Positions 17,579-48,682 of a DNA stretch of 64,000 nucleotides are shown here, piece after piece; position 1 is the stretch's first letter, and every line of letters begins with the position of its first letter. The position numbers and the translations under genes were made by a program. Source of the DNA: Verpa conica (taxonomy: Eukaryota > Ascomycota > Pezizomycetes > Pezizales > Morchellaceae); assembly GCA_033030425.1 (NCBI GenBank), contig JAUFSD010000014.1, forward strand, positions 124,001-188,000, given 5' to 3'. The notes below the pieces were generated by a model, which was not told where the DNA came from, did no database searches, and was given only the letters and a program-made list of their open reading frames with translations.

Positions 17579-19993
17579 TTATCCTCCAAAAGAAATTAGA
17601 CCCATAAAAAAATCTATCAACCTAATCTCTCCCGATGCGTCTTCCGGTACATCCTCTGGTAAACTCTCCGGTACATCCTCCGGTACATCCTCGACAGCGA
17701 CACCCCTCTTTGGTCTACTAATTTGCTCTCCTTCTTGCGTAGTGCTCCCTTCCTCCTCTGGTGCACGTACCGAAATAGCCCCCCTTTCTTCTAGTGAAGT
17801 GCTTGTCCCATCGTCTAAAGTGGTATGGTCTTCAATCCAAGTGATCAGTTTTACTTCCGGTCTAGACTGCTCTTCTTCTGACCAGTTGATTAGGCTTTCT
17901 TCGATCTCAATAGTGTGCCCCCCTTCAACGCCACTCCCCTCTTCTCCCAGCTGAGCCAACCCCGTTACCCCCTCCACTTCTTCATCTAGACTTCTTCTCG
18001 CTTCTTCGCCCAACTCGTTCTTCACTTCTTCACTCATCCTATTTCTCGCTACAGCCTCCAACAACATTGTTCTAATTCTCTCGAAGCTATCTCTCCGATT
18101 ATCATACATAGCGCAACCTGCCTCTGCCGCTTCCAGGGCGGTAATCCCCAATATAGGTGCTGGCTGGGCATGGACATCGGCTCCTGCCTTTAGGAGTATG
18201 TCAACGATACGTTCACGACCAAACTCTGCTGCAGTCTGGAGCGCCGTCCGTCCGTGGTTTGGTGCTGGTGGGGCATTGACCTGGGCTCCGGCATTAAGAA
18301 GAATACTGATAGTGTCTTCATGTACATCCCATGCCGCAGCTTGTAGTGCTGTTTTCCCCCAGTTATATGCTGGTGGAGCGTTGACTTCGGCTCTGGCACT
18401 AAGAAGAATCTCCACAATGCCAGCATGACCATTTTCTGCAGCAGCTTGAAGAGCTGTTCTTCCCCAGGCCGATGGCAGATCGTTGACTCTAGCCCCGGCC
18501 TTGAGTAGGGTCCGGACAATTCTTTTATCGCCAGTCTCTGCTGCAGCTTGGAGTGGCGTTCGTCCTAAGGCAGGTGCTAAGTCCGGTGATGGTTGAGCAT
18601 TTACATCAACATTGAGATGGGATAAGACTTCAACAATATTGTGATGGCAACCCTTAATCGCATCCAAGAGCGATATTTGCGTGGGGTCCCATGGGAAGTA
18701 ATCAACCCCAGGTCCAAGGAGAATATCTATTATCCATAACTGGGAGCCTACGGCGTGAAACAATGTTCGTCCTGAGTCCACCAACGCTGGTCGGATTTTG
18801 AACTTGGCCCCACGATCTAGGAGAATCTTGGCAACAGCTTCGTGCTCGCTTCAACGACGTATGCACACCCAAACGTACCAATGGCGAGAAGTAGCGTTCC
18901 ACTAAAAAAAAGCCAGAACGCATGGGCAGGCTGTTCTTTTACGTTCCATGGCTCGTTTCCGGAAAACTGCAGCCTGAACTGTATGGCTCCCGCAAAGGCC
19001 AGAACAGCACCCTGTAAGATAACCCCGACGGAAATACAAAATGCTTGTTTCTGTCGGCTGACGGTCTTGAAACCAACGTTTAATGAGAGGTTTGGAGGGT
19101 TTTCGAGAGCTGACAAAAGTAACTCCAAATCTCCCTCTCCCTTAGGGTCATCATCCTCTCCTTTACGATCACCGCTATAGCTACCTTTGTTAAAATACCC
19201 CATATCAACCGCTTCCCGAAATGTGAGTATCTCGGGTACTTTCTTAGCTGAATCTTCCGATGGCACAAAGACAAGCTGCAACAAAAGCGGAGACCCAAGA
19301 ACCCTGGCTATACCTTCGCCATTCCATAGCTCACAAACATCTGGGGATGTGGATGACATCAAGTCCGCCTCCACAACAGCTCGACTTTCCGTTGACCTCC
19401 CAATGAGCGATCGGAGATTTGGACTGCCTGAGACCCGGATGGCAGATACCACGACAGTAATAATTCCCAGTGGAGCCAGGGCAAAGATTATATTATCGAC
19501 CAGATTGAACGACTCTCCCAGGTACTGCTTGGTAACCTGCTCTCCAAATAGTGCAAGCAATGGAGCTAAATCAGTTCCGAGGTTATTGAGGATATCTTGC
19601 CACGCAGGTGTGGTTTCGTTTCCAGCGGCGCTAGTTGATGCGGCCATTGATAGCATGAGGATGAATACCGTGAGCGACCGAATATTTGGCCTGAAAGATA
19701 TATCTATGGTTGTAGCTCCGGGGTACGGTAGCTGCGACAAAAGTGGTACTAATCCCCTAGTTGGTACACTCTATACTGGCAATTCGTTAGGCATTGACCC
19801 AATGCCATCCATACAGCTATAAGTACACACCTTCAAACTCCCGTAGAACAGTATCAATCCCCAGTTTCTTTTCTTCTCGTGGTTTATCAGGCCGGAGGTG
19901 CCGTGTTGCCAGTAGATAGTCCTATTCTAGTGTCAAAACCCGATTATCCCAAATCAAAACCAACTCATTCTTTACCTCGATAACAGTATCCAT
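17579..19993 (-). pseudogene. Copy A: membrane-ankyrin gene, internally deleted and out of frame
   Basis: A shortened paralogue of the gene at 22851-30959. Two 5' exons are visible: ATG near 19993 (MDTVIE), then DYLLATRHLR..LREFEG at about 19927-19835. The membrane exon (from about 19780) reads a signal-like helix, WQDILNNLG, APLLALFGEQVTKQYLGES and three further hydrophobic segments. After YVVEASTK at 18838 the frame runs into a stop, while the +1 frame continues at once with AVAKILLDRGAKF and about eight ankyrin repeats (18784-18060). An acidic tail with EDVPE repeats follows and ends at 17579. The second membrane half, the linker and some 40 repeats are missing relative to copy B. A 41-nt GT..AG stretch (18878-18838) could restore the frame if spliced, but copy B keeps the same bases as coding. 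A pseudogene is therefore more likely than a functional short form. Confidence 0.75.
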
Positions 19994-22850: not shown

Positions 22851-25800
22851 TTATAAAATTGCTACTTCTGGTGCTACTTCTGTTGTAAAACCCGTAATCG
22901 CGCCGGCCGCTAGCAGAAAGTCTTTGACCTTCTCAAAACCATCTTTACGAAAGTTGTCTTTTAAACTGCCTTCAATTGCCACCTGCAATGCTGTTTTCCC
23001 CGATATACGTGCTGGTGCGGCATTTACGCTAGCCCCAGCCATCAGAAGCACCTTAACAATACCCAAATGACCAGTAGATGCCGCAGCCTGAAGTGCTGTT
23101 CGTCCTGAATATGGTGCTGGCGAGGCATTGATATCGGCTCCAGCTCTCAAAAGCAATTCAACAGTATCTACACGACCAGCCCTTGCTGCAGCCTGAAGTG
23201 CCGTTCGTCCTGAATCCGATACTGGTGGGGTGTTGACATCTGCTCCGGCTTCTACAAGCATCTCAACAATTTCTACATGACCAGTCGATGCCGCAGCCTG
23301 AATCGCCACTATTCCTGAAATTTTTGCTGCTGCGGCATTTGCGTCGGCCCCCGCTTCTAGAAGTATCTCAACAATACCTCTACGGCCAGCCCGTGATGCA
23401 GCTTGGAGTGCTGTTCGTCCTGAGTTCGGCGCTGGTGGGGCATTGGCTTCTGCCCCAGCCTCTAAAAGCATCTTGACAATGCTTACCCGTCCAGTCCTCG
23501 CAGCAGCTTGAAGCGCCGTCCGTCCCGAGCCCGGTGCGGGGGGCGCATTAATTTCTGCCCCAGCAGCTAGGAGCACCTCTATAATTTCTTCACGACTACA
23601 CTCTGCTGCAGCTTGGAGTGCTGTTCGTCCTGAGTCTGGTGCTGGAGGGGCGTTGACTTCTGCACCAGCATTCAGAAGTATATAGATAATTTCTTGATGA
23701 CTAAACTCCACCGCAGCTTGAAGCGCTGTTCTTCCGGAGACCGGTGCTGGTGGAAAGTTGACTTTGGCCCCGGCTTTCAGGAGGGTCAAGAGGATATCTT
23801 TGTTACCGCATTCAGCAGAAGCCTGGAGCGCAGTACGCCCTGAAATCGGTGCTGGTGCAGCATTGGCGTCGGCACCAGCATTTAGAAGAATTTTAACAAT
23901 GCCTTCATGGCCACCCGCCGCAGCAGCTTGAAGCGCCGTTCGTCCTGACTTTGGTGCTGGCCGAGCGTTGACATTAGCCCCGGCTTTGAGAAGGAGGTTG
24001 ACAATGTCTTCATAACCACATTCTGCTGCAACTTGAAGTGCCGTCCTTCCTGAGTCATGTGCCGCTGGGGCGTTGACATCTGCTCCAGCTTTAAGAAGCA
24101 TATCGATAAAGACTTCATGCCTAAATTCTACTGCAGTTTGAAGCGCTGTTCTTTTTGAGTCTTGGGTATTGGGATTAACTCCACGATCTAATAGAATACT
24201 GGTAATTCTTTGGTATTGGCCCTCAACTGCAGCCCTGAGAGATATTTCCTCCGAGTCCCATGACTCAGGATTAGCCCCAGATCCCAAAAGAAATTCAATA
24301 ATTTCTAGATTTAAGCCTGCAGCTTGTAGTGCCGTCCGCCCTGAAACCTCTGCTGGAGCGGCGTTAACATCTGCCCCAAACATTAGAAGGACTTTGATAA
24401 TGTCTTGATGGGCACCCTCTACCGCAGCTTGAAGTGCCGTTCGTCCTGAGACAACCGCCGGTGCGGCATTGATGTCGGCGCGCGCTTTCAGGAGGATATT
24501 GACGATGCCTTCATGACCATACTCTGCTGCAGCCTGAAGCGCCGTTCTTCCTGAGTCTGGTGCTGGTGTGGCGTTGACATTTACACCACTATCCAAGAGA
24601 ATACTGACAATACGTTCATAGCCACCTCTAGCTGCTGCTTGTAGGGCCGTCTGCCCTGAGTATAGTTGTCCTGCTCCGTTATGTACTTGCACTTGACCGG
24701 TTATTATACTTGATGTGTACATGGCTGGTTGGGCGTTAACATCTGCGCTAGCCTGTAAGAGAATCTTGACAATGCTCTCATGTCCACCCTCTGCCGCAGC
24801 TTGGAGCGCTGTCCGTCCTGAGTACAGTGCTGCTGCGTCATTGATATCGGCCCCGGAATTCAAAAGGAGGTTGACGATGTCTTCGTGGCCACTCCCTGCT
24901 GCAGCTTGAAGTGCCGTCCGCCCTGAGTATAGTGCTGGTTCATCGTTGATATTGGCCCTGGCCTTCAAAAGGAGGATGACAATTTCTTCGTGGCCGTATT
25001 CCGATGCAGCTTGAAGTGCCGTCCGCCCTGAGTCCTGTAATGGTGGTGCATTAACATTGACTCCGCGAGCTAGAAGTAAATTGACAATGTCTGCATAACC
25101 ATTCCGAGCTGCAACTTGAAGCACCGTCGGGGGTATTAATGATTGGGCTCTCTTATCCAAAAGGGTCTTTGTGGTCCTGCTGTGGTGGCCCTCTACTGCA
25201 GCCATGAGCCATATTTTCCTTGGGCGCCACAACTGGGGGTTGGCCCCGAATTCTAGAAGTGTTTCAATCATTTTCAAGTCAGTTCCCGCGACTTGAAGCG
25301 CTGTTTGCCCAGAGTCTGGGTCTGAGGCGTTGGCGTCGGCTCCGCGAGTTAAAAGAATTTTGGCAACTCTGCTGTGATGACCCTCTACTGCAGCCAGGAA
25401 CGGTATATATTTTAGGTCCGAGGAGAGAGGTTTGGCCCCAAATTCCAGAAGTATCTCGATTATCTCTAAATTTGAACTTGCGGCCTGAAATGCAGTTAGT
25501 CCTGAATCAGGAGTTGGTGCAGCGTTGGCATCGGCCCCGCGATTTAAAAGAATCCTGAGTATACTACTGTGGTGACCCTCTATCGCAGCCAATAGGGGTA
25601 TATAGTCCGAGCCCCAGGAATGATAATTAGCACCTGATTGCAAAAGTGTTTCTATTACTCCTAGATGAGTATTGGCAGCTTGAAGTGCCGTCTTTCCGGA
25701 GACCTCTGCTGGCGCGGCGTTGACATCTGCATTGGCTTTCAGAAGGATGTTAACAATAACTTTATGACCACCCTCTGCTGCAGCCTGGAGGGCAGTTCTT

Positions 25801-28800
25801 CCCGAGTCCGGTGCTGGTGCGGCATTAACGTTGGCGTTGGCTTTGAGAAGGGCCCTAACAGTATCCGCGTAACCACCCCCTGCCGCAGCTTGAAGCGCTG
25901 TTCGCCCTGAAATATCTGCTGGTACAGCATTGATATCGGCTCCAGCTCCCAGAAGAATATTCAAAATTCCTTCATGCCCATACCCTGCGGTAGCCTGGAG
26001 TGCTGTTCTTCCTGAGTACAATGCCGGCGCAGCATTGACGTTGGCTCCGTAGTTTAAAAGTATCTTGACAATATTTTCATGGCCACTTTCTGCCGCAGCC
26101 TGGAGTGCTGTTCGTCCTGAGTGTAGTGCTGGCGCAGCGTTAACATCGGCTTCGGCTTGTAAAAGCATCTCGACGATGAATGTATGGCCGTGCCATGCCG
26201 CAGCTTGAAGCGCCGTTCGTCCTGAGTCCGATGCCGGTGGAGCATTGATGTCAGCCCCAGCTTCCAAAAGAATCTTGGTAATGACCTCATAACCCCCACT
26301 TGCTGACGCTTGAAGTGCCGTTAGACCTATATTTTGTGGTGATAGAGCATTGATATCAGCATCGGTTTTTAGGAGAATTTTGACAATGCCTTTATGGCCA
26401 TATTCTGCCGCTGCATGAAGTACTGTTCGACTCGGGTCCTGTTCTGGCACGGCGTTGACATTGGCTTTATGGTCTAAAAGCGCTTTGACAATACCTTCAT
26501 GACCACTCGCTGCGGCAGCCTGTAGTACAGTTCTTCCATGGCGTATAGTATTGACATTAGCCCCCGCCTCTAGAAGCTTGATAACAATTCCTTCATGACC
26601 AGCTCCTACAGCCGCCTCTAGTGCTGTTAACTGAAAACTATCTGCAGGCATAGAATTGACATTGGCTCCCCCTTTTAGAAGCATACTGACGATGGCTTCG
26701 TGGCCGTGGCTTGCTGCAGTCTGTAGCACAGCTCCTCCACGGCCTGCAGCGTTGGGATCGGCTCCTCTGTCTAAGAGATTCTTAAAGATTCTTTCATGTC
26801 CCGCCTCTGCAGCTGCTTCGAGTGCTGTTTTCCCAGATATATCTGCTGGTAGGGCGTTGACATCAGCTCCAGCTTCTAGAAGGATCTCAACAATCCCCTC
26901 ATGACCACCTTCTGCTGCAGCTTGAATCGCCGTCCGTCCTGAATTTGATGATTGTGAGGCGTTAACATCGGCTCCGGCATGTAAAAGGGCCTCCACAATG
27001 CCTTTATCACTACCCCCTGCGGCAGCCTGTAGTGCGGTTCGTCCTAATAACAGTGATGGTAGTGCATTGACTTCGGCCTTGCGATCTAAAAGGAGCCTAA
27101 CAATTTCTGCATGGCCACCCTCTGCGGCAGCTTGGAGGGCCGTTCGTCCTCCGTCTTCTGCTGGTTTGGCATTTACATCGGCTTTAGAGTTTAAAAGGAC
27201 CCTAAAAATACTTTCATGGCCAGCCGCTGCTGCAACTTGTAGTGCAGTGCGTCCATGATTAGAAACGTTGACGTCGGCCCCTCCTTCTAATAAGATCTTA
27301 ACAATTTCTTCATAGCCAGCCTTTGCAGCTGCTTGAAGCGCTGTTGTCCCTGATATATCATTCGGCACGCTGTTGACATCGATCCCTTTCTTTAGGAGAA
27401 TCTTAACGATTTTTCCATGCCCACCCCCTGCGGCAGCTTGCAATGCAGTGTTTCCATGCCCTACAGTATTGACATGGGCTCCGGCTTTGAGAAGGATATT
27501 GACGATTTCCTCATGACCAGACTCTGCTGCTGCTTGAAGTGCTGTGACCCCAGTTATATCCTGTGGTATGGTGTTGACCTCAGCTCCTTTCTCCAAAAGG
27601 ATCTTGACAATGTTTCCGTGGCCACCCCCTGCCGCAGCCTGCAGTGCAGTTCGACCGTTTTTCGGTGCTGGTGCGGAATTGACAACGGCCCCAGCTTCCA
27701 GAAGGATTTTAGCAATATTTTCGTGACCACCCTCAGCTGCGGCCTGGAGTGCTGTTCGCCCCGAGTAGTATGCTGGTGGTGCATTGAGATCGGCACCAGC
27801 ATCTATAAGCCATCTCACGACCTTGTCTAATCCAGCCCTTGCTGCATCCTGCAGAACCGTGTCCCTACTACTATCGTACTCCAGCGCTTCGGTTGGTGGT
27901 TGTAGGACATCTAGCCTTCGTTCATCAATGTCACCCTCGTTAATAAAAAGTGCTTGTATCCTACGGAGTGCACTGTCAGGGGCGGGGAGCTTTTTCGAGC
28001 TGCGCAGTGGTGGAATGATGGATAAATATGCCCTCTCGATCGTACCGAGGCCGGAGTTATTATAGATAGTCGCAAGAGAAGCTAGATTTGAGTTCAAAAG
28101 GCAGAAGTTCCTCAATCCAGTCTTTTTACTATTTGTACGAAGCGTAGTATCACCACCAATATCCTTTATGATGTTCACTAACTCCGACATGAAGCGTGCA
28201 TAAACCTCTTGGGCGCATAGAACTTCCATATCCTCTTCAGCGCCAACACTTAGATAATGTTGCTCCATGTTATGGGATTTACCACTCCATCCGAAGTATC
28301 GAGTTTGGGGCTCCAATGGCTTCTCAACCAATGCATTCTCGCGGTGTATCCAGAGCTTATAGTCCCCCTTTGCTGCCATGTCGTCACCAGGCGCTAATAT
28401 CCAAATATTTTTGATTGGGTCTCCGCCATCTGGTTTGTGACTTTTATCGACTTGAGAAAGCGAATAGATCCAAAGGCACAAGACAGCCTCAAGCTCCTTC
28501 TCATCAATTCTCCAAGGGCTCCAGTCGCTGTCGTCATCCTCCCGGCGAAGGGTAAGGCAGATACTCGACAGCTCAGTTTCAGGATCGTCGATAGCGGGTA
28601 TAGTTGGCGAGGTCTACATTAAGTGGTTAGTCGTCTCTTATACGATATACCGTATCTACTATCGATATAGATAGATTAATAGGCCATTTGATCTGAATTT
28701 GTGAGGAACATATTCTCCACATAGACATATCACATGACAGATTAGTCTACTAATACCCACCCACCCTGATAGCGGTATAGCCACATATCTTACCGTGGCT

Positions 28801-30959
28801 TGACGTCTCAATATGTGACTTACACCGCTGCTGGAGATCGAGTAGATACGTTATTGTCTAAGAGGAAGGGAAGAGCCTACAAATAGAGATTTTAACCACT
28901 TTAATAATCCTAAAAGATCTCTAAAAATAGCCTTTGTTGCACTATATAACAGAAATTCATGTCAGATGATTTGACTACCCAGGTGATAAATATTAACGGG
29001 ATATCAACGCACTTTAGAGAAAACTAACCTTAATCGACTTCTAAATTTGTTTGGTGTAGCATCTGGTGTGGGGGCAGAGGTATCCGACTCCCCAGTTGTT
29101 GAACGGTTACCAGAACTAGTGCCAACTCTCTCATCGCGAGGTTTAGGCTTAGGCTTAGTTCTCACTTGTAAGTTCCATTTAAATTCATTAGAGAATTCAA
29201 AGCCAGACTTCAAGGTCATAGTATCATAAACCTCCCTCATCGTTTCTTCAATAGCGTTCTTCAAAATCCTAACATTTTTTCGATCCCTAACTTTCCAGCC
29301 CCCCGAGAGTTCGGCCAAGCGGGCGCGAGTTTTCATGACCGTTGTTGCCCGATCCGTAGATTTCTTTTCGTCCGTCGTTTGCTGTGGCCCAGAGATAATC
29401 TCCCATGACTCGCAACTATTAAAATCGTTCGCTAGCCAATCCAACTCATGCCCTTCCACCTTATCAGGGTTTATGATACCCTTTTTGTTTTCTTGTCTTA
29501 CATGGACCCAGGACCTTATAGCGGTCATAAACATAATTGCACCCAATTGTGCCGCTATAACTAGATTGTTCATCATTCGGGAGGCAACAAACTGGACAAT
29601 AAAACCGACCACAGCACTGAGAGAGACAACCAAGACCACAATCTTCCTCCAGGTCGATTCCCGCCCTTTCTCTGATGTTAATATCATAGATGTCTTTAAG
29701 CGTAGAGCAAAGGCTTCAAATAGTTGATCACCAACTGTTTGCCCCCCCTTCTGAAGCCAGACCACCTCAATGTTCCCTGCGCCATTCGACTCCCAGGAAA
29801 TCTCTTTTGTGCTTGTTTCAACTACCCATGCGCATCCAAATGTTCCAATTGCAAGAATCATCGTTCCACCGACAAAGAGCCAAAAGGCATGCATAGGCTG
29901 CTGCTTTGTAGACCACGGCTCGCTCTCAGAATACTGCAGCCTAAACTGTAAAACCCCCGCAAAAGCGAGAACAGCGCCCTGTGCAATAACCCCAAGCATT
30001 ACGCAGAATGCCTGTTTCCTATAACTGGTATTTTTGAGGCCAACATTCAATGAAAGATTTGGAGGATTTTCGAGCGCCGATAAAAGGGCCTCCGAATCGT
30101 TGGTATCTCCCTTCCGGTGGGGTTTGTAGATCCCCTCGGCAACAGCATCCCGAAATGTGAGTATTCTGGGCACATTCTCGCTATGCGGGAGATCAGGATC
30201 GTTCGATGTCACAAAAACCAACTGTAGTAGAAGCGGGCACCCAAGGACTCTGACTATCCCTTCGCCATTCCATAATTCGCAAACATCCGATGATGTAGAT
30301 GACATTAGGTCAGCTTCCACAACACCACGACTTTCAGTAGACCTCCCAATGAGTGACCGGAGGGCTTGACTTCCTGAGACTCGAATGGCGGATACCACTA
30401 CAGTGATAATCCCAAGGGGGGCAAGGGCGAAGATTACATTATCGACCCAGGAGAATGACTCCCCTAAGTACTGCTTTGTAACTTGTTCCCCAAATAGCGC
30501 AAGCAATGGAGCCAAATCACTCCCAAGATTGTTAAGAATGTCTTGCCATGGAGCCGTAGTATTTTGGCCTTCGCAAGGAAATATGACCACCGATAGAATA
30601 ATTGTAGCGATAAAAAATGCCGTAGACGACCTAATTTTTGACCTAGAAAGTGCTTGAGTAGTTGGCATTTCGGTCCACGGGTATTGTGGGTGTGACAAAG
30701 GTAGTAGCCCTCGAGTTGATGCCTCTCGTGCCTCTCGTACTAAAGTTATTCAGGATTAGACACTTGCAAGAAAATCATATATAAGATAGTGAATAAATAC
30801 GTTTAGAGATTCCCATGATATTAACCTCTAGATCGCTGCCTTCTAGAGTGGTCTCAGACCATAGCCTTTCTGCTGCTGGCGCATTCTAACTCAACGTCAA
30901 ATTCTGACACTCTTTCAAGTCAATGTTAGTCTCTTTACCTCAATAGTGTCGAGCTGCAT
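22851..30959 (-). CDS. Copy B: giant membrane protein with about 48 ankyrin repeats
   Basis: Probably one gene of about 2,500 residues. Exon 1 (30959-30939) gives MQLDTIE. A small exon near 30890-30830 follows. The membrane exon (about 30710 to 29026) has a signal-like helix, the motif APLLALFGEQVTKQYLGES, and about five more membrane segments ending near QLGAIMFMTAIRSWV. A cytoplasmic linker follows. The last exon (28613-22851) starts TSPTIPAIDDPETEL, then ELEAVLCLWIYSLSQ, a linker, and an uninterrupted array of 35-residue ankyrin units of the form SGRTALQAAAEGGHEGIVKILLEAGADVNAAPA. The linking introns between 29026 and 28614 are not resolved: phase requires a small middle exon (28920-28881 fits) or a weaker acceptor. 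Fungal proteins joining this membrane module to ankyrins are known but uncharacterised. The array points to a receptor or scaffold role, perhaps in non-self recognition. This is inference. Confidence 0.8.
22907..28030 (-). repeat. Ankyrin-coding tandem repeat array, unit about 105 bp
   Basis: About 48 repeat units of roughly 35 codons lie head to tail without intron or stop. Many share runs such as SGRTALQAAAE. Most units are 35 residues, not the canonical 33, because of a two-residue extended loop (APAPD, PADIS and similar). Between units 20 and 26, and again near unit 34, a different two-unit module appears in which LEIIEILLEFGANP is followed by LLAAVEGHHSR. Confidence 0.9.
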
Positions 30960-37824: not shown

Positions 37825-38748
37825 TTAACACCACCGATGGGGAGAGAGGAAAGGGTAATGTTCTTTTCGTTTGGAGGGCTTTTTTGGGGGTTATTGTCTT
37901 TTCTACTTTTATTAAAAAGCTGGTGTTGGTATTTTCCATTCTTGTTTTACTACAACTTTTTTTTCCTCCCCCACAACTTTTATTTTCTCTTACTCGCCTT
38001 TTCGTTGTTTCCCTTCTACAGTGAGTGTGGGTGTACTCTACAACTAGTTGTGGTACTAGTTTCTTTATTCATCATGGCTCTTGGCTGCTTTCCTTGTACC
38101 TACCTTTATAGTGAGTAGAGTATGTAGGCGTAGGAAAGCATGCGGGTTGGTAATGGGCGGGGAGTGTGCAGGATTTGTTTGTATTTTTCTTCTTTGCGTT
38201 AGATATATTTGTAGCTTTTGTCTTTACGATGCTCGAGGGGAATTTAGTGGTCAATGGGACAGAGGGGGAGGGGGTGTAAATAGCCTTTTACGAAGATGAA
38301 TGGTAGTTATGCTTGTTTTTGTTACCAACTTGTCCCTTCTTGTCCTAGATTACAGATCAGTCTCATGCGTTTTACAGACTTGGCATTGGCTTGGCCCAGT
38401 CTGTACACTACAAGTATCCTGTTCTCCCAAAAAGCAAATACACAGAACAAAAAGGGGTTGTTCCCTCCAGACTGGAAGGTATTTGGGCCCATAGTTACTC
38501 GAGTAAGCTATCGGTATAGGGGAATACCTCTGCATACCGCTCAGTGAACATAACACGGTATGTACCCTCCCGCCCCCCCTTCGATTTCCACCGGTAACTT
38601 CTTCATTTGATGAGACCGTACTAATCCTTGCATCAATGTATAGGCGAAGGTACTAGTTAGTGTATGGGGTACATCAGATAACCACCACCACTTACCACCC
38701 GTCTACAATTCCGAATTCGAACCCCCTTCCCAAACCTCCCGAACCGAA
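37825..38748. other. Intergenic, no supported gene
   Basis: The 3' region of SCC3 is T-rich. The frames in it are hydrophobic by composition only. The right end is the promoter of the F-box gene that follows. Confidence 0.4.
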
Positions 38749-40158
38749 ATGGCCCAAAACCCATCTCAGCATGATATCGCCTCCGAGGAGGAGGAAGAGG
38801 AGGAAGAAAAAGTATCGATTCTCAGCCTCCCAAACGAAATCCTTCTACAGGTTGCCGAATATACAACAAAGCCCCGAATCAGCCACCGTACCGGAGAACC
38901 ATTTTCCGAATTCTTTGCACGGTGTCAAGCATATAAAGAAAAATCTCGGTCCAAGTCTTGGCCTGGTGAATCAGGTCTCAAATCACTCATACCCCTCAGC
39001 CTTACAAACCGGCTGTTTGCAAATATCACGTCAGAGATCTTCCATAAGGCTGCCTGCCTAGCAAAGAACTCAACTCAGGCCATTTATTTCGCAGCGGCTA
39101 ATGGTAACGAGAAGATGGTTCGGCTTCTCTTGGCTAAGGGGGAGGGTATTAAGTTTCAGTTTAAGCCCGGGCCGGGAGCCAAGGTTAGGTACCTTAATTC
39201 GCCTGGAATATATGATGAAACTATCATAAGACATGTGATGGAAAAGGGACCAAATTTCGAACATGGAGGTTATAGTTCTTTAGAATGGGCGATCACTAGT
39301 GGGAAAAAGGCATTAATGCGGAGAGCTCTGGAGCGAGGGGCGAATGTTCGTGCTAGGTGCGCTCGTGCTCATAATGCAGGGTTGTTTACAGTGGGAGAGT
39401 GGGCGCTCCACGTAGCGGCGGAGGAGAGGCTGGGAGAACCCGTTTCAATCGAGCTTTTGTTGGGTATGGGAGTCAATGTCAATGCTCAAAAGAGTACGGA
39501 TGGGGCAACGGCGCTTCACCGGGCAGCTTTTGTAGGATGTTCGAGCACTATAAGGCAGCTCATTAAAGGCGGAGCAGATGTCAATATCATGGACAATGAT
39601 GGGCGGACATCACTTGACTATGCTAAACGTCCCCGGGGGATACCACGCCCCCCTGGCCGGGAGTTAAAGGACTTGGTTTGGCCACTTCTGGAGGCTGGAG
39701 CTATAGACGAGAAGCCTGGAACGTCTTTACTCCATATGGCAGTAGAGTATGATCACTTGAGACTTGTCAAATACCTTTTACGGCATGGTTTCGATATTGA
39801 TGCTCGTGACGACAATGACGACACGCCGTTTCACCTTGCAGTGAAAACGGGTAATATAGACATTGTAAAGGTACTTCTCGCGAAAGGGGCTGATATCAAT
39901 GCCTGTGCCTTGTGTGGATGGACCGGGCTTCATTTTGCAGTCAGACTTGGATACAAGACTGGGTACGAACAGAAGAGAATGATTGAACTGTTGGTGGAGT
40001 ATGGGTCTGATATAAATGCACGAGATGGACATGGCAAAACGCCTCTCATGTTTGCAGGAAGAAACTTTGATGATAGGACGTTGGCTTTGCTGTCAGGTGA
40101 GTTGGATATAAACGCTTCTTCTGGCAGCGCCGATACGAGGAGGAAGTCTAGGGATTAG
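38749..40158 (+). CDS. F-box protein with ankyrin repeats
   Basis: A single exon of 469 residues. After an acidic start (EEEEEEEEKV) comes an F-box-like helix pair beginning ILSLPNEILLQVAEYT and ending with TNRLFANITSEIFHKAA. About eight ankyrin repeats follow from residue 105 (IYFAAANGNEKMVRLLLAKG) to the end. Good examples are TALHRAAFVGCSSTIRQLIKGGADVNIMD and TPFHLAVKTGNIDIVKVLLAKGADINA. F-box proteins recruit substrates to SCF ubiquitin ligases through Skp1, with the ankyrins as the probable substrate-binding part. This gene is the largest of three related F-box/ankyrin genes in the window. It differs from them by an insert between F-box helices (SHRTGEPFSEFFARCQ). Target unknown. Confidence 0.85.
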   Translation: MAQNPSQHDIASEEEEEEEEKVSILSLPNEILLQVAEYTTKPRISHRTGEPFSEFFARCQAYKEKSRSKSWPGESGLKSLIPLSLTNRLFANITSEIFHKAACLAKNSTQAIYFAAANGNEKMVRLLLAKGEGIKFQFKPGPGAKVRYLNSPGIYDETIIRHVMEKGPNFEHGGYSSLEWAITSGKKALMRRALERGANVRARCARAHNAGLFTVGEWALHVAAEERLGEPVSIELLLGMGVNVNAQKSTDGATALHRAAFVGCSSTIRQLIKGGADVNIMDNDGRTSLDYAKRPRGIPRPPGRELKDLVWPLLEAGAIDEKPGTSLLHMAVEYDHLRLVKYLLRHGFDIDARDDNDDTPFHLAVKTGNIDIVKVLLAKGADINACALCGWTGLHFAVRLGYKTGYEQKRMIELLVEYGSDINARDGHGKTPLMFAGRNFDDRTLALLSGELDINASSGSADTRRKSRD

Positions 40159-41903: not shown

Positions 41904-43767
41904 TCAAAACCCTGCTCTTCCCACCGTATTCTCTATACAAGCATCTCCACTACACCCCTGATTCCCCTGTACAAACACCACCAAAACCGCCGCATAAGCA
42001 GCAATAACCATTACGATAGCCTCCCCTCTGCCTCTCGTCGCCAGCGCTACCAGCATCGCCAACACGATAGTAAATAAACTAATACACACAAGCTTCCACG
42101 TATCACTCGTCAGAAACTGCAATATAACCATCGGACATAACATCAAAGCCGTCGTTGCAAGTGCAATAATCAGCCTTGTGATACGCCTCGTGAATGGGGA
42201 TAATATAGAAGCCATATCTTTCTGTGAAAGGTTACGGTGGCGGACATCTTCGACGCTAGGATTGCGGTGTGGGAAGATCGCAGGGACGATACGACCAACA
42301 AGCTTTTCTAGGGAGTCTCGACCACCGAGGCCGAGTGCGACTAGATCATCACTATTGGCAGTGCCTGTGAAAGGGTTGGAGTCGTCGGGTGATGCAGAGG
42401 GGTCTTCAAGAGCAGCTAATAGTCGGCTATCAACTAGACGTGGAGGATCAAGAGCGGTGAATATTTGTTCTTGGAGAAGAAGTGCCTCATCTATATATAT
42501 TGTTATTATTACTGGGTAACCACAATATATCGGGGGGGGGGGACGAACAGTAACTCTTTAATTTAACTTGCAACATTTTCATTAATTTAATTCTCGTTTC
42601 CCGGAGCTCTTGCTTCTCGCTTTCACTCTCACTAACCCCAGTTTGCGTCCACCTGGTCTCTTCCATATCAACGTGTGTCAATGCTCTTTCTATACCGGCG
42701 AGCTCATCCTGGTAATATAGCAGATTTGCCATCGATAGTCTTCCAAAGCGTCTAAAGATCGAGATATGTCGATATGCGTGCATAGACTGTGCAATTACCC
42801 GATAATCAAAGACAAGTCTATCATAACGCGGGTCTGGCTCCTGTGAAGCGGTCGACCAAGAGAAACTACTGCCCGTCGTGTTATAAAGACTTGTTTTTGT
42901 CCCTGTAGCATCATGATGGTGGTGGTGATGGGTTTTGTGATTATTGTGTGAAAAGTTTGTGTAGTATCCATGGGGCTCATCGGGAGTAGAGGAGGGTATT
43001 GAAGGACTCTTTGGGGGCGCGCTGCATGAATTTTCTGGGACAGACTCTAGCGATGCGGGTTTGATTGTTATTTGTGACTCTTTTCGGGTAACGACTGGGG
43101 AAGAGTGTTGTGATTCCCTCATGGCGTTGAATGACGCCTGAGTTATTGTTGCTTGGGATGTCTGTCTATTGGGGGTCGGCCTTATATTGTGAGATTCAGG
43201 AATAGAGCTTATTGAGCCTGGAGATTTCCCAGATTGTGATGACTCCCTACTTAAGCTAGGATTTTCCACTTCCTCTCCGGGGGTGCTCTTCGTAGATGTC
43301 TGTATGGTAATAGGAGTTATAGCTGCTAGAGAAAATCCTCTGTTAAATATGGGAGCTGGCTGTTGGGGTTGCTCTATTGGAGTACTAGCCGCTGGAGTTT
43401 GAACTGGTGCAGGTGGAATAGCTGCTGGAGTTGATACCCAATGAGTACCACCCGGAGTCAAAGGCGGGTCGTCAAAGCATTGCAAATAGGCCATAGACTG
43501 CCTTATAGTCGCTAGGGATGATGTCCGGTTAACCGTTGCAGTTGACTGTTGGGCTTCTCCATAAGACTGGACCACCGTGGCTTGGGATGGCTGGAAAGGC
43601 CCATCTGCAACGTACGGAAACGGGAACTGTGAACTATTCCTAGGTGTACGAGCGGACGATCGGAAGCTCATAGCTCGTGCGATAGCCGGTGGAAAATTAT
43701 ACTCGGGCTCTTCATTGCTATTGTTACTAGGACTGGAGGTCGGGGTAGACCCACTGGCTAGCCCCAT
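41904..43767 (-). CDS. DUF6594-type fungal membrane protein
   Basis: Exons 43767-42555 and 42490-41904 give 599 residues. The intron (42554-42491) has a GTTACT donor and joins VKLKN to EALLLQEQIF in frame. The reading frame above 43767 begins with CTG, so the ATG giving MGLASGSTPTSS was chosen. The N-terminal 300 residues are disordered, rich in Ser, Thr, Pro and Gln, with a six-histidine run. The family core begins at YDRLVFDYRVIAQSM and contains FRRFGRLSMANLLYYQDELAGIE, typical of DUF6594. The C-terminus has three hydrophobic helices (IIALATTALMLCPMVIL, LVCISLFTIVLAMLVAL and AIVMVIAAYAAVLVVFV). The function of this family is unknown. It is often expanded in filamentous ascomycetes. Confidence 0.85.
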
Positions 43768-46021
43768 ATTGAAGTACAGCAAGAGTGTAAAAAAGTATGT
43801 TGTTATAGTAGTAGTTCATATAAAACCAAGGTTTGGGGTCGAGAGAAGCTTTAGCTTTTATTAATAGGGTGGGGGAAGCCACACCTGTTAAGAAGGCGCC
43901 CGAGCCGAAGATTATGTATCATCTCGTTTTAAAAGCCCACTTTGCCTACTCCCGCGTGATGGGGCTGCGGCGATATATATATACCCCGAGGTCTTCATGT
44001 AGTTGTTTCGTGCGGTATATCCCCCGCGTTCAGTGGTCACGGGACCCTGTGCGACGTCCTTGTGATATACTTATCATAGACTACTAATAGCAATATTTCA
44101 TCTGATGTCACCGAAACCCAAAAGATCAAAAGTTTTTTTGATGGTGAGAGGCTGCAGGTGGATGATTCTCCTGATACTCTGTTCCTGGAAGTTTGATGCA
44201 GGTCCGTCGCTGTTGCGAAGGATCAACAAGATGCTCAAGATCCCTGCAGATTATAATGGCACATGAACATTTTGAACCGCCAGGCGGAGAATAATAGCTG
44301 GCGGAGCAAGGTAGAACCGAGATTCTCTCCAGCATGACACTCTTGCATACGCTCATCCGACTGGATGGCTGACTCAATCAATAAATGATTATACGCAGTT
44401 GCGGCTGTCCACAGGCCAGGGGTACATGTTCTTATGAACTAACCTCTAGAAAACAGTTAGTGAATAGCTCGCATCGCTTAAGTAAACCTAGAAGCTTAAA
44501 TTCTCCAGTTACCTACATTATTCAGTTGGCATCACTCTATTTCTTGTTGGTTGATGTTCAACTTGTGAACTTCGATGGTTATTGCCAAGGCCTAGTAACC
44601 CTAGCCCGCAAATCTTAATATCAGGTGGAATTACAAACCTCTTTATAAGCGCCATCCATTCAAGATACGGAGAGTAAGTCAGCTTTTTTTATTTAACGTA
44701 GTGAAAAGCGTCTAGACTAATGTTAATGGGACCCATAAAAGATATATTAACGACATAAACTATCACTCGCTCAAGAACCCTAGATTAGGAACGACTGACA
44801 AAGGGAGTAAAGGGCAAGGCCAAGTGATTCGTCTTTTTTTTATTAGGTCTTTACCCCTTTTCTGCATAGATCCGAGAACTGGGTACCCTCGATAGGTGTT
44901 CCCTCAAACCTCATTGGTTACTTGGCCTGTGCATGAAGGAGCGAAGGAGCGGAGGGATCCCATTTCTTTATCTCTTGATGCTATGGTTTGAGGCATTCTT
45001 TGAGACTACGTCAATCGTGGGGGGGGGGATTGATCTTAGGGTACTTATAGTGTTACTTCCTGCGGTACCATCACAAATATTTGGGTGGTGTCTATTCCAC
45101 TCCATATCCCTTAGCGTGACCAAAAATACAACATCTGCACACAGTATTACGTCTAGAAATCCATTTAATTCTAAGCAGACGGCCGGGTAAGGCATGAATA
45201 ATAGACGACAATGATAGGTCTTCAATGCAGATTATTCTTGCACACATACCCCACTACTCTACCAACTTCAAATCTAAGCAATCATATTTTATCCCACAAA
45301 CTATGTTTAATCACGGTGCTACTTAGTTATCAAGTCTTTATTCTCTAATTAATATCTGTTTAGCTTCATACCTTGATGTGAGATACATGCTGGATTATCT
45401 ATTGTCTGAAGTTTGATCAAAAGGCTCACGATTAGAAGGTGAGAAGAGATAGTCGTGTAGATTATCTCGGTATGATGGCCTCAATTCGTGACTGGTAGAA
45501 GGGACTAACACTTACTTTAGTTGAAGGGTACCTACATCTTTCAGGCACTTTCATGTTGGTACTCACAATGACAGCGATAAATACTCTGATTACACGATAT
45601 TTGAGGATTGGAGAAATGAGAATTATTTTCTGCTGCTTCTAGGGGTGCCTTCATACAGCAGAGAGCTTCAAATTAATTTGTCGTCGCTGAGTCTCTGGAT
45701 TAGTCCGGTTCCCAAGGGTGGTCATGGTGGGCCTCGGGGTATTTCCCATCAGCCTAAAGTTTCTCAGAATTATGTCTCGATAGCTTGGGTATGTGAGCCC
45801 ATCACATCACTTCTAAAGATCTCTGTGGTTCGCTACGGTAGGTCATACTCAAATAGTGATCAATGACTGAGGTTAATTTCATCATGATCATACAGGTTTA
45901 TTCAGTTACACAGGAATTTCGACATGTAGAAGAAGAAATCAAAATGAAATACCCAGAAATATCAGGCCAAAAGGCCAAAAACTCTACACAGGTTAGACCC
46001 CATAACTCTCTCCAAACAAAT
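43768..46021. other. Long intergenic stretch
   Basis: About 2.25 kb without a confident gene. A frame at about 45620-45866 (+) reads SRELQINLSSLSLWISPVPKG and is composed like protein but has no ATG context, no recognised family and no neighbouring exon. It could be a gene remnant. Confidence 0.4.
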
Positions 46022-47686: not shown

Positions 47687-48682
47687 CTAACAGTCAAAGT
47701 AGGAGTTTCTCTTTAAGAGTGGGAAAGCCATTTTCTCATACCCACGATACACGGCTAGTGCAAGCGGTGTATAATTACCCGTGTTGATTAGGTTGATATC
47801 AGCCCTTTCATCTACCAACATCTCCATAACAGACTCGCGCTGCCATTCAACAGACAGATGAAGTGGCGTATTTCCATCGTTGTTTTTTACATCGATATTT
47901 GCACCATTTCCTAACAAGAACCTAGCGACTCCCCCTTGTCCATACATCGCGGCCATATGGAGCGCTGTATCCCCATGGTTCTCTCTCGCCTCAAGAACAC
48001 CACCTTTTTCCAGTATCAGCTTTACCACGGAGACACTACTCTGCCCACACGCCTCGTGAAGCACTGTCTCTCCGTAGATATTTGAGAGATGAACACTAGC
48101 ACCTCTCTCTAAGAGCATTATCGCCGTCTCCTCCGCTCTCGAAAATATTGCCGCCCTAACCTCCTGGTTTTCAAACTCTCTATTACAGGTTTTGACCAGT
48201 AGTTTTACCGCTTTCGAAAGCGCTGTTTTACGACTCAGATTAACAGCGTCAATCCTCGCCCCATTCTCTAGTAACATGTATGCAGCTGCCATATGACCAC
48301 CCTTTGCAGCGCTGTGAAGTGGTGTCTCACCCCTCATATCCAGTGCTTCGGTATCAGCATGTTTAGCAAGAAGTAGGCTGATTACTAACTGATGTCCAGA
48401 CCGTGCTGCGCAGTGGAGCGCTGTGAGGTGTGTATTATTGCATGTAACATTAACGTCAGCACCCTTTTCGAGAAGGAAGTTGCACCACTTATGATAGCCT
48501 TTCTTTGCAGCCCAACAGAGCGCTGGGAGACCATCTTTGTCTTGGCTGAGGAGATCGTAGAGGAGCTTGGTAGTTATTTGGGTGAAGAGGTGGTTTGTGA
48601 GGAGGAGAGAACTCATGTCTTTTGCCTTGAGGTTTTTGGCAATTATATGCAGGATTTCGTTTGGGAGATTTAAAAGCGGCAT
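47687..48682 (-). CDS. F-box protein with ankyrin repeats
   Basis: A single exon of 331 residues with a clear ATG at 48682. The F-box begins at once: LLNLPNEILHIIAKNLKAKDMSSLLLTNHLFTQI. About eight ankyrin repeats follow, among them TALHCAARSGHQLVISLLLAKHADTEA, TPLHSAAKGGHMAAAYMLLENGARIDA and TPLHLSVEWQRESVMEMLVDERADIN. One repeat is interrupted by an insert with a KAVKLLVKTCNREFENQE helix. The protein ends KRNSYFDC. The likely role is ubiquitin-ligase substrate recognition, inferred from the F-box. Together with the neighbours at 46022 and 38749 it forms a loose group of F-box/ankyrin genes. Confidence 0.85.
   Translation of the reverse strand: MPLLNLPNEILHIIAKNLKAKDMSSLLLTNHLFTQITTKLLYDLLSQDKDGLPALCWAAKKGYHKWCNFLLEKGADVNVTCNNTHLTALHCAARSGHQLVISLLLAKHADTEALDMRGETPLHSAAKGGHMAAAYMLLENGARIDAVNLSRKTALSKAVKLLVKTCNREFENQEVRAAIFSRAEETAIMLLERGASVHLSNIYGETVLHEACGQSSVSVVKLILEKGGVLEARENHGDTALHMAAMYGQGGVARFLLGNGANIDVKNNDGNTPLHLSVEWQRESVMEMLVDERADINLINTGNYTPLALAVYRGYEKMAFPLLKRNSYFDC

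What the first reader, a model, noticed from the sequence alone, without database searches (positions are those of the whole stretch)
22907..28030. About 48 nearly uniform ankyrin repeats in a single intact exon
Repeats share long identical runs at protein level yet the 5.8-kb frame has no stop. Such uniformity suggests recent unequal exchange or gene conversion, as in the fast-evolving repeat arrays of fungal non-self-recognition proteins. Unlike those NLRs, this protein carries a multi-spanning membrane module and no NACHT domain is seen. It may be a separate membrane-bound sensor class.
Basis: partly seen in the sequence, partly recalled or inferred. Interest (0 to 1): 0.8.

Follow-up and report, generated by a model that had tools for sequence, protein, structure and literature searches.

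The report
Giant membrane-anchored fungal ankyrin protein
This fungal gene encodes a very long membrane-anchored ankyrin protein; its 48 repeats look alike as protein but are old and well diverged as DNA, while a sister gene in the same genome carries a recently homogenised array of the kind seen in fungal recognition proteins.

Summary
An open frame on the minus strand (28613-22851, 1,920 codons) encodes 48 ankyrin units. A likely intron joins it to an exon (30668-29013) with a signal-peptide-like start and five predicted membrane spans; no NACHT is seen. "Nearly uniform" fails: unit cores average 53% protein and 60% DNA identity, 0 of 946 pairs reach 85%, and fourfold sites agree at 0.46 (chance 0.29; 0.31-0.40 against four sister genes). 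The array is an old, gene-specific amplification under purifying selection, not recent exchange. The idea fits sisters better: the module occurs at about 21 places here and across Pezizomycotina, with no Pfam model or solved relative found; the 120 listed full-length relatives all carry ankyrins. In 2 of 17 family arrays examined here (C17, C4), and in 7 of those 120, self-identity reaches the published 85% threshold; C17 units vary mainly in the inter-repeat hairpin. But 4 of 15 control ankyrin loci in this genome reach it too, so it is no family mark. Best reading: a membrane-anchored cytosolic ankyrin scaffold or receptor of a fungal family for which no description was found; recognition is inferred.

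The parts
29013..30668 (-). Exon 1: signal-peptide-like stretch (residues about 14-32) and membrane module with five predicted spans (77-95, 222-240, 265-283, 343-361, 366-388); first in-frame ATG at 30668
   Evidence: Open frame and ATG; hydropathy; AlphaFold2 pLDDT 83.5, pTM 0.80; 42 matches at about 21 places in own genome; 217 database relatives at E up to 0.001
28614..29012 (-). Predicted intron of 399 nt: donor GTGCGT, branch-like CTAAC about 12 nt before the end, acceptor TAG; joining keeps the frame
   Evidence: Sequence; sister genes L040 and L041 carry module and ankyrins in one open frame. No RNA evidence; two-intron models not excluded
27870..28613 (-). Exon 2, first 248 codons: linker conserved in the family; the roughly 240-residue TPR-like region seen in relatives is about 40 residues here
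   Evidence: Linker search found 6 full-length relatives; comparison with L041 and P0122-P0125
22851..27869 (-). Exon 2, array of 48 ankyrin units (mostly 35 residues, 105 bp) and short C-terminal tail, to the stop codon
24156..25697 (-). Inside the array: degenerate paired units (about 62-65 residues), three pairs in tandem at 25697-25137 and a fourth at 24341-24156; plus one 54-residue unit starting at 24818
17582..19770 (-). Broken tandem paralog, related to the gene: module as far as the third span, then a change of frame straight into about five ankyrin units; the middle is missing
   Evidence: Pfam ankyrin in 17582-18850

Best explanation
The gene is a long member of a Pezizomycotina-wide family for which the papers searched give no description: signal-peptide-like start, five-span membrane module, linker, then a C-terminal ankyrin solenoid. 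Positive charges flank the spans on the side that leads to the ankyrins, which puts the array in the cytosol (inferred). Most likely the solenoid binds one or several cytosolic partners and passes the binding to the membrane module, which acts as anchor and possibly as an output such as a channel (inferred). The 48 units arose by old duplications inside this gene, then diverged under purifying selection on the ankyrin scaffold; they are not being homogenised now. Sister genes with near-identical units that differ mainly in the hairpin suggest that arrays of the family pass through phases of fast unit turnover, as in fungal recognition proteins. A role in recognising non-self or intruders is the most likely biological use, but is not shown. 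Steps shown: gene anatomy, family, repeat divergence, homogenised sister arrays. Steps inferred: splicing, topology, ligand binding, output, biological role.
For: Same module at about 21 places in this genome and in 217 and 444 database proteins (120 listed each); all 120 listed carry ankyrin domains. Confident module model; hydropathy and flanking charges. Old gene-specific amplification: fourfold identity 0.455 within the gene, 0.308-0.396 against four paralogs, 0.286 by chance. Purifying selection: pN/pS 0.44 over 23 regular units. Family arrays with recent homogenisation: C17 units 0.89 DNA identity (8 of 11 units), pN/pS 0.21 outside and 2.24 in the hairpin; C4 with 10 copies at 84% match; Maublancomyces P0126 and Morchella P0134. 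Four close database relatives of one another (P0122-P0125) keep unit order apart from one two-unit insertion and small gaps.
Against: No expression, localisation or phenotype data. No convincing structural or sequence match for the module, so an output is guesswork. High internal conservation is not special to this family in this genome (4 of 15 control loci), and 15 of 17 family arrays examined lack it. The C17 hairpin positions were chosen after seeing the codon table; for positions 29-35 the excess is not significant (Fisher p 0.14, 0.06 in a first run; 0.036 for 30-35). This gene shows no hairpin excess (p 0.43). Shorter relatives often show no ankyrins (11 of 37 members of A2 match); many are partial, so whether some members truly lack them is open.
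Confidence: 0.5

Rival explanations
1. Plain membrane-anchored scaffold: the solenoid collects cytosolic proteins (trafficking, cytoskeleton, signalling) and has no role in recognition of non-self.
For: The array is old, under purifying selection and shows no hairpin excess; four close database relatives keep unit order but for one two-unit insertion; 15 of 17 family arrays examined are not homogenised.
Against: Large paralog number, broken copies and homogenised arrays with hairpin-centred variation in sisters.
Confidence: 0.3
2. Active non-self sensor: this very array is kept uniform by ongoing unequal exchange.
For: High consensus similarity at protein level; neighbours slightly more alike in DNA.
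Against: 0 of 946 core pairs at 85% or more; fourfold identity 0.455; best 300-nt self-identity 0.72.
Confidence: 0.05
3. Mechanically gated or ligand-gated channel with an ankyrin spring, in the manner of NOMPC or TRPA1 (recalled) but with an unrelated membrane part.
For: Multi-span module joined to a long ankyrin solenoid.
Against: No ion-channel Pfam match, no supported structural match; the ankyrins lie C-terminal instead of N-terminal.
Confidence: 0.1
4. Two separate genes, or one gene broken between module and array, instead of a spliced gene.
For: The joining intron is long for a fungus (399 nt; usual length recalled) and rests on sequence signals only.
Against: Donor, branch-like and acceptor signals keep the frame; paralogs L040 and L041 have both parts in one open frame; the linker that follows the gap matches the family.
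Confidence: 0.07

Closest known systems
Fungal NLRs with ankyrin repeats and high internal conservation (Dyrka et al. 2014, PMC4986451, passages read)
   Same: C-terminal superstructure repeats; large expanded family; in some sister genes near-identical units with variation centred on the hairpin
   Different: No NACHT or NB-ARC; membrane module instead; the array of this gene fails the 85% threshold
Plant ankyrin-transmembrane immune proteins, ACD6 and wheat Lr14a (PMC7878491, passages read)
   Same: Ankyrin repeats fused to a multi-span membrane part, without an NLR core; precedent for a membrane ankyrin protein giving race-specific resistance
   Different: Reverse order (ankyrins N-terminal in Lr14a); 12 repeats in Lr14a against 48; no Pfam match of the membrane part was found here
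Uncharacterised Pezizomycotina 'ankyrin repeat' or 'hypothetical' proteins such as Maublancomyces gigas Q9L58_008413 (P0124) and Morchella snyderi P0134
   Same: Same module and C-terminal ankyrins (linker too for P0124)
   Different: P0122-P0125 keep a helical region of about 240 residues before the ankyrins and have fewer units; some family arrays are homogenised
Tuber melanosporum NACHT-ANK genes with 3-bp mini-exons (mentioned in PMC9815663, passage read)
   Same: Ankyrin arrays diversified in a truffle; kinship of truffle and this genome is recalled taxonomy plus nearest named relatives
   Different: NACHT present there; many mini-exons there, one array exon here

Membership tests
Fungal NLR (STAND) | NACHT or NB-ARC nucleotide-binding domain | tested here: not met
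   No such Pfam match at E up to 0.01 in the frames 22851-28481 and 29004-30698; genome-wide NACHT and NB-ARC searches list no place inside the window
Fungal NLR (STAND) | C-terminal ANK, WD40 or TPR repeats | tested here: met
   Ank_2 E 2.1e-279
Fungal NLR (STAND) | Recognised N-terminal effector domain (HET, PNP_UDP, HeLo and the like) | tested here: inconclusive
   No Pfam match in exon 1; the unknown module could itself be an effector
Arrays of high internal conservation (85% over at least 100 residues) | Units at least 85% identical over 100 residues | tested here: not met
   Best 100-residue self-identity 0.73; 0 of 946 core pairs at 0.85. My measure is not the T-REKS program of the paper
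Arrays of high internal conservation (85% over at least 100 residues) | Unit-number polymorphism between isolates | not testable with these tools
   No other isolate of this species was at hand
Plant ANK-TM (ACD6, Lr14a) | Ankyrins N-terminal, membrane spans C-terminal | tested here: not met
   Order reversed
Plant ANK-TM (ACD6, Lr14a) | PGG membrane domain (Pfam; definition recalled) | tested here: not met
   No such match in exon 1 nor among the families matched by 37 relatives
TRP channels with ankyrins | TRP-type transmembrane fold | tested here: inconclusive
Pezizomycotina membrane-module ankyrin family (as defined here) | Membrane module | tested here: met
   41-50% identity to the five best database proteins; R96, G108, E112, E118, E131, P203 invariant in an alignment of 90 sequences
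Pezizomycotina membrane-module ankyrin family (as defined here) | Conserved linker followed by ankyrins | tested here: met
   Six full-length relatives found with the linker alone, 36-44% identity
Pezizomycotina membrane-module ankyrin family (as defined here) | TPR-like helical region before the ankyrins (seen in P0122-P0125 and the sister L041; not surveyed in all members) | tested here: not met
   About 40 residues here against 239 aligned columns in P0122-P0125; TPR likeness rests on a model of P0009, pLDDT 74.8, best Foldseek E 1.8e-3

The most novel reading that the evidence does not exclude
Pezizomycotina possess a second, NACHT-free class of intracellular recognition receptors: membrane-anchored proteins whose cytosolic ankyrin arrays cycle between fast unit turnover with hairpin diversification (as in the C17 and C4 sister genes, Maublancomyces P0126 and Morchella P0134) and long quiet phases (as in this gene), with an unknown five-span module as the output device: a fungal parallel to plant ACD6 and Lr14a.
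Probability: 0.25. Interest if true: 0.8.

Novelty: new variant of a known kind. Interest (0 to 1): 0.45.

Why it matters
The module is widespread in filamentous ascomycetes and multi-copy in this genome, yet no Pfam model, no solved relative and no description turned up (nine paper searches). If its homogenised arrays are recognition surfaces, fungi have a membrane-bound counterpart of NLRs, and the question becomes testable with unit-number typing and array swaps. The case also shows that protein-level likeness of repeats can mislead: DNA-level divergence must be checked before recent exchange is inferred.

Tried and rejected

The nearest full-length named relatives are from Maublancomyces gigas and Morchella, which suggests Pezizales (placement recalled).
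Full report
What is there. The window is G000:C14:124001-188000 of an unnamed 45.8-Mb, 25-contig genome. On the minus strand an open frame runs from 28613 to the stop at 22851, 1,920 codons. From 27869 on it encodes ankyrin repeats (Ank_2 E 2.1e-279). Cut by hand there are 48 units, mostly 35 residues long, with degenerate pairs and one unit of 54 residues. Upstream, 30668-29013 is an open exon whose first in-frame ATG is at 30668. A GT-AG intron of 399 nt with a CTAAC about 12 nt before its end joins the two in frame; the joined coding sequence has 7,419 bases and no internal stop. Two sister genes carry both parts in one open frame of 1,882 and 2,102 residues, so the two parts belong together. 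There is no RNA evidence. At 2,472 residues the protein is longer than all 120 full-length relatives listed (1,062 to 2,223 residues, which by its length rule could list up to about 3,290).

How uniform it is. With an automatic profile, 44 unit cores of 28 residues were found; their mean pairwise protein identity is 0.53, the maximum 0.82, and none of the 946 pairs reaches 0.85. Mean DNA identity of the cores is 0.60. The best 100-residue self-identity anywhere in the protein is 0.73 and the best 300-nt self-identity 0.72. Fourfold sites agree in 0.455 of 9,166 comparisons; with third bases drawn at random from this gene's own usage the value is 0.286. Against four paralogs the value is 0.308, 0.321, 0.371 and 0.396. 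The units of this gene therefore share a history of their own, but roughly one synonymous change per site has accumulated since (my estimate from 0.545 differences). Neighbours are not more alike at fourfold sites than in shuffled order (0.460 against 0.455, 194 of 500 shuffles as high), though they are in total DNA (0.630 against 0.603, 0 of 500). Over 23 regular units pN/pS is 0.44. The likeness of the repeats is thus kept by purifying selection on the ankyrin scaffold. The threshold used for comparison, 85% over at least 100 residues, is that of Dyrka et al. 2014 (PMC4986451, passages read), who report it for 10% of ankyrin repeats in fungal NLRs and 1.2% of such repeats in Dikarya at large; I did not run their program.

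The family. The upstream exon has no Pfam match. The same module gives 42 matches in this genome, which I merged to about 21 places, and 217 database proteins at E up to 0.001, 120 listed: Morchella, Tuber, Orbilia, Fusarium, Aspergillus, Trichoderma, Colletotrichum and others, mostly called hypothetical where named. That search was limited to short proteins by its length rule; of 37 such and longer relatives scanned, 11 match ankyrin families, and many of the rest are partial. A search for full-length relatives with a sister gene gave 444, 120 listed, and all 120 carry ankyrin domains. A few add a further domain: a subtilase match behind the ankyrins in P0207 (E 8.6e-6) and three H-type lectin stretches in P0229. 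The module model is confident (pLDDT 83.5, pTM 0.80, 90 sequences): a long N-terminal helix, hydrophobic helices and two small beta parts. Hydropathy gives a signal-peptide-like stretch and spans at 77-95, 222-240, 265-283, 343-361 and 366-388, with positive residues on the side that leads to the ankyrins, so the array is most likely cytosolic; a sixth hydrophobic stretch at 137-155 falls on strands in the model and was not counted. No solved structure resembles it convincingly. In P0122-P0125 and the sister L041 a helical region of about 240 residues lies before the ankyrins; it is TPR-like in a model of P0009 (pLDDT 74.8; best Foldseek match kinesin light chain, E 1.8e-3). This gene keeps about 40 residues there.

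Of 18 family sources examined in this genome (this gene, the broken neighbour and 16 loci), 17 had a scorable ankyrin frame and 2 reach 0.85: L043 (C17) at 0.92 and L042 (C4) at 0.85. In L043 the eight units of regular length (of 11) average 0.85 protein and 0.89 DNA identity; 17 of 35 positions have a single codon, while positions 10, 30 and 32-35 carry three to five residues each. pN/pS is 2.24 at positions 30 and 32-35, chosen after seeing that table, and 0.21 elsewhere. In C4 (nine units) it is 1.12 in the hairpin and 0.36 elsewhere, with further variable positions outside it. Counting minimal steps in C17, 16 replacement and 5 silent steps fall in positions 29-35 against 6 and 7 elsewhere (Fisher p 0.14), or p 0.036 for 30-35; in C4 the contrast is p 0.019 for 28-33 and 0.0004 with positions 27, 1 and 2 added; in this gene p 0.43. 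An earlier run of the same count gave p 0.06 for C17 29-35, as ties in the spanning tree are resolved arbitrarily. The windows were not all fixed in advance, so this is suggestive only. Among the 120 listed full-length database relatives 7 reach 0.85, including Morchella snyderi P0134 (1.00) and Maublancomyces gigas P0126 (0.92). Among four close relatives of one another (P0122-P0125) unit order is kept apart from small gaps; P0124 alone has an extra pair of units, and substitutions, counted on 18 regular units of P0124, gather at unit positions 14, 15, 18, 22-24, 26, 30 and 33.

The control. High internal conservation is not a mark of this family here. Among 15 ankyrin loci that lie at none of the module's places, 4 reach 0.85 (L055 0.92, L056 0.94, L058 0.96, L061 0.90) and one gave no frame; eight of the 15 were picked for having many strong matches. 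The genome also has NACHT and NB-ARC matches (61 and 18 at E up to 0.001), none in the window.

How it most likely works. Shown: anatomy, family, age of the array, homogenised sister arrays. Inferred: the array lies in the cytosol, binds one or more partners over its long solenoid, and signals through or anchors at the membrane module. Non-self or intruder recognition is the most likely use, by analogy with fungal NLR arrays (PMC4986451; PMC12222747, passages read) and with plant membrane ankyrin proteins such as Lr14a and ACD6 (PMC7878491, passages read). A plain scaffold is the main rival. A 2019 comparison of Trichoderma genomes says that ankyrin proteins of Pezizomycotina have not been systematically characterised (PMC6560777, passages read).

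Verdict. A real, intact and unusually long member of a widespread family for which I found no description; the reason given for its interest, recent exchange, is not supported for this gene but is visible in sister genes.

Noticed in passing
window 17582-19770 (-): Broken tandem paralog: 71% DNA identity to the focal module up to the third span, then another frame with about five ankyrin units; the middle of the gene is missing.
   Followed up: partly
L043 (G000:C17:424000-428500, -): Sister gene with near-identical ankyrin units; an in-frame stop falls in the last unit while ankyrin-like sequence continues behind it.
   Followed up: partly
window 38644-40155 (+): Ankyrin ORF with what looks like an F-box near its start (F-box recalled, not in the Pfam output).
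   Followed up: no
window 47687-48682 (-): Another short ankyrin ORF, 331 residues.
   Followed up: no
window 42487-43782 (-): ORF with a DUF6594 match near its C-terminal end.
   Followed up: no
window 24156-25697 (-): Second-order repeats inside the array: degenerate pairs of about 62-65 residues, three in tandem and one apart.
   Followed up: partly
P0207, P0239 (Colletotrichum); P0229 (unnamed): Family members with a subtilase match (P0239 from the precomputed list only) or three H-type lectin stretches.
   Followed up: partly
L055, L056, L058, L061: Ankyrin arrays away from the module's places that are also highly homogenised; L055 and L056 carry a GPIID winged-helix match.
   Followed up: partly
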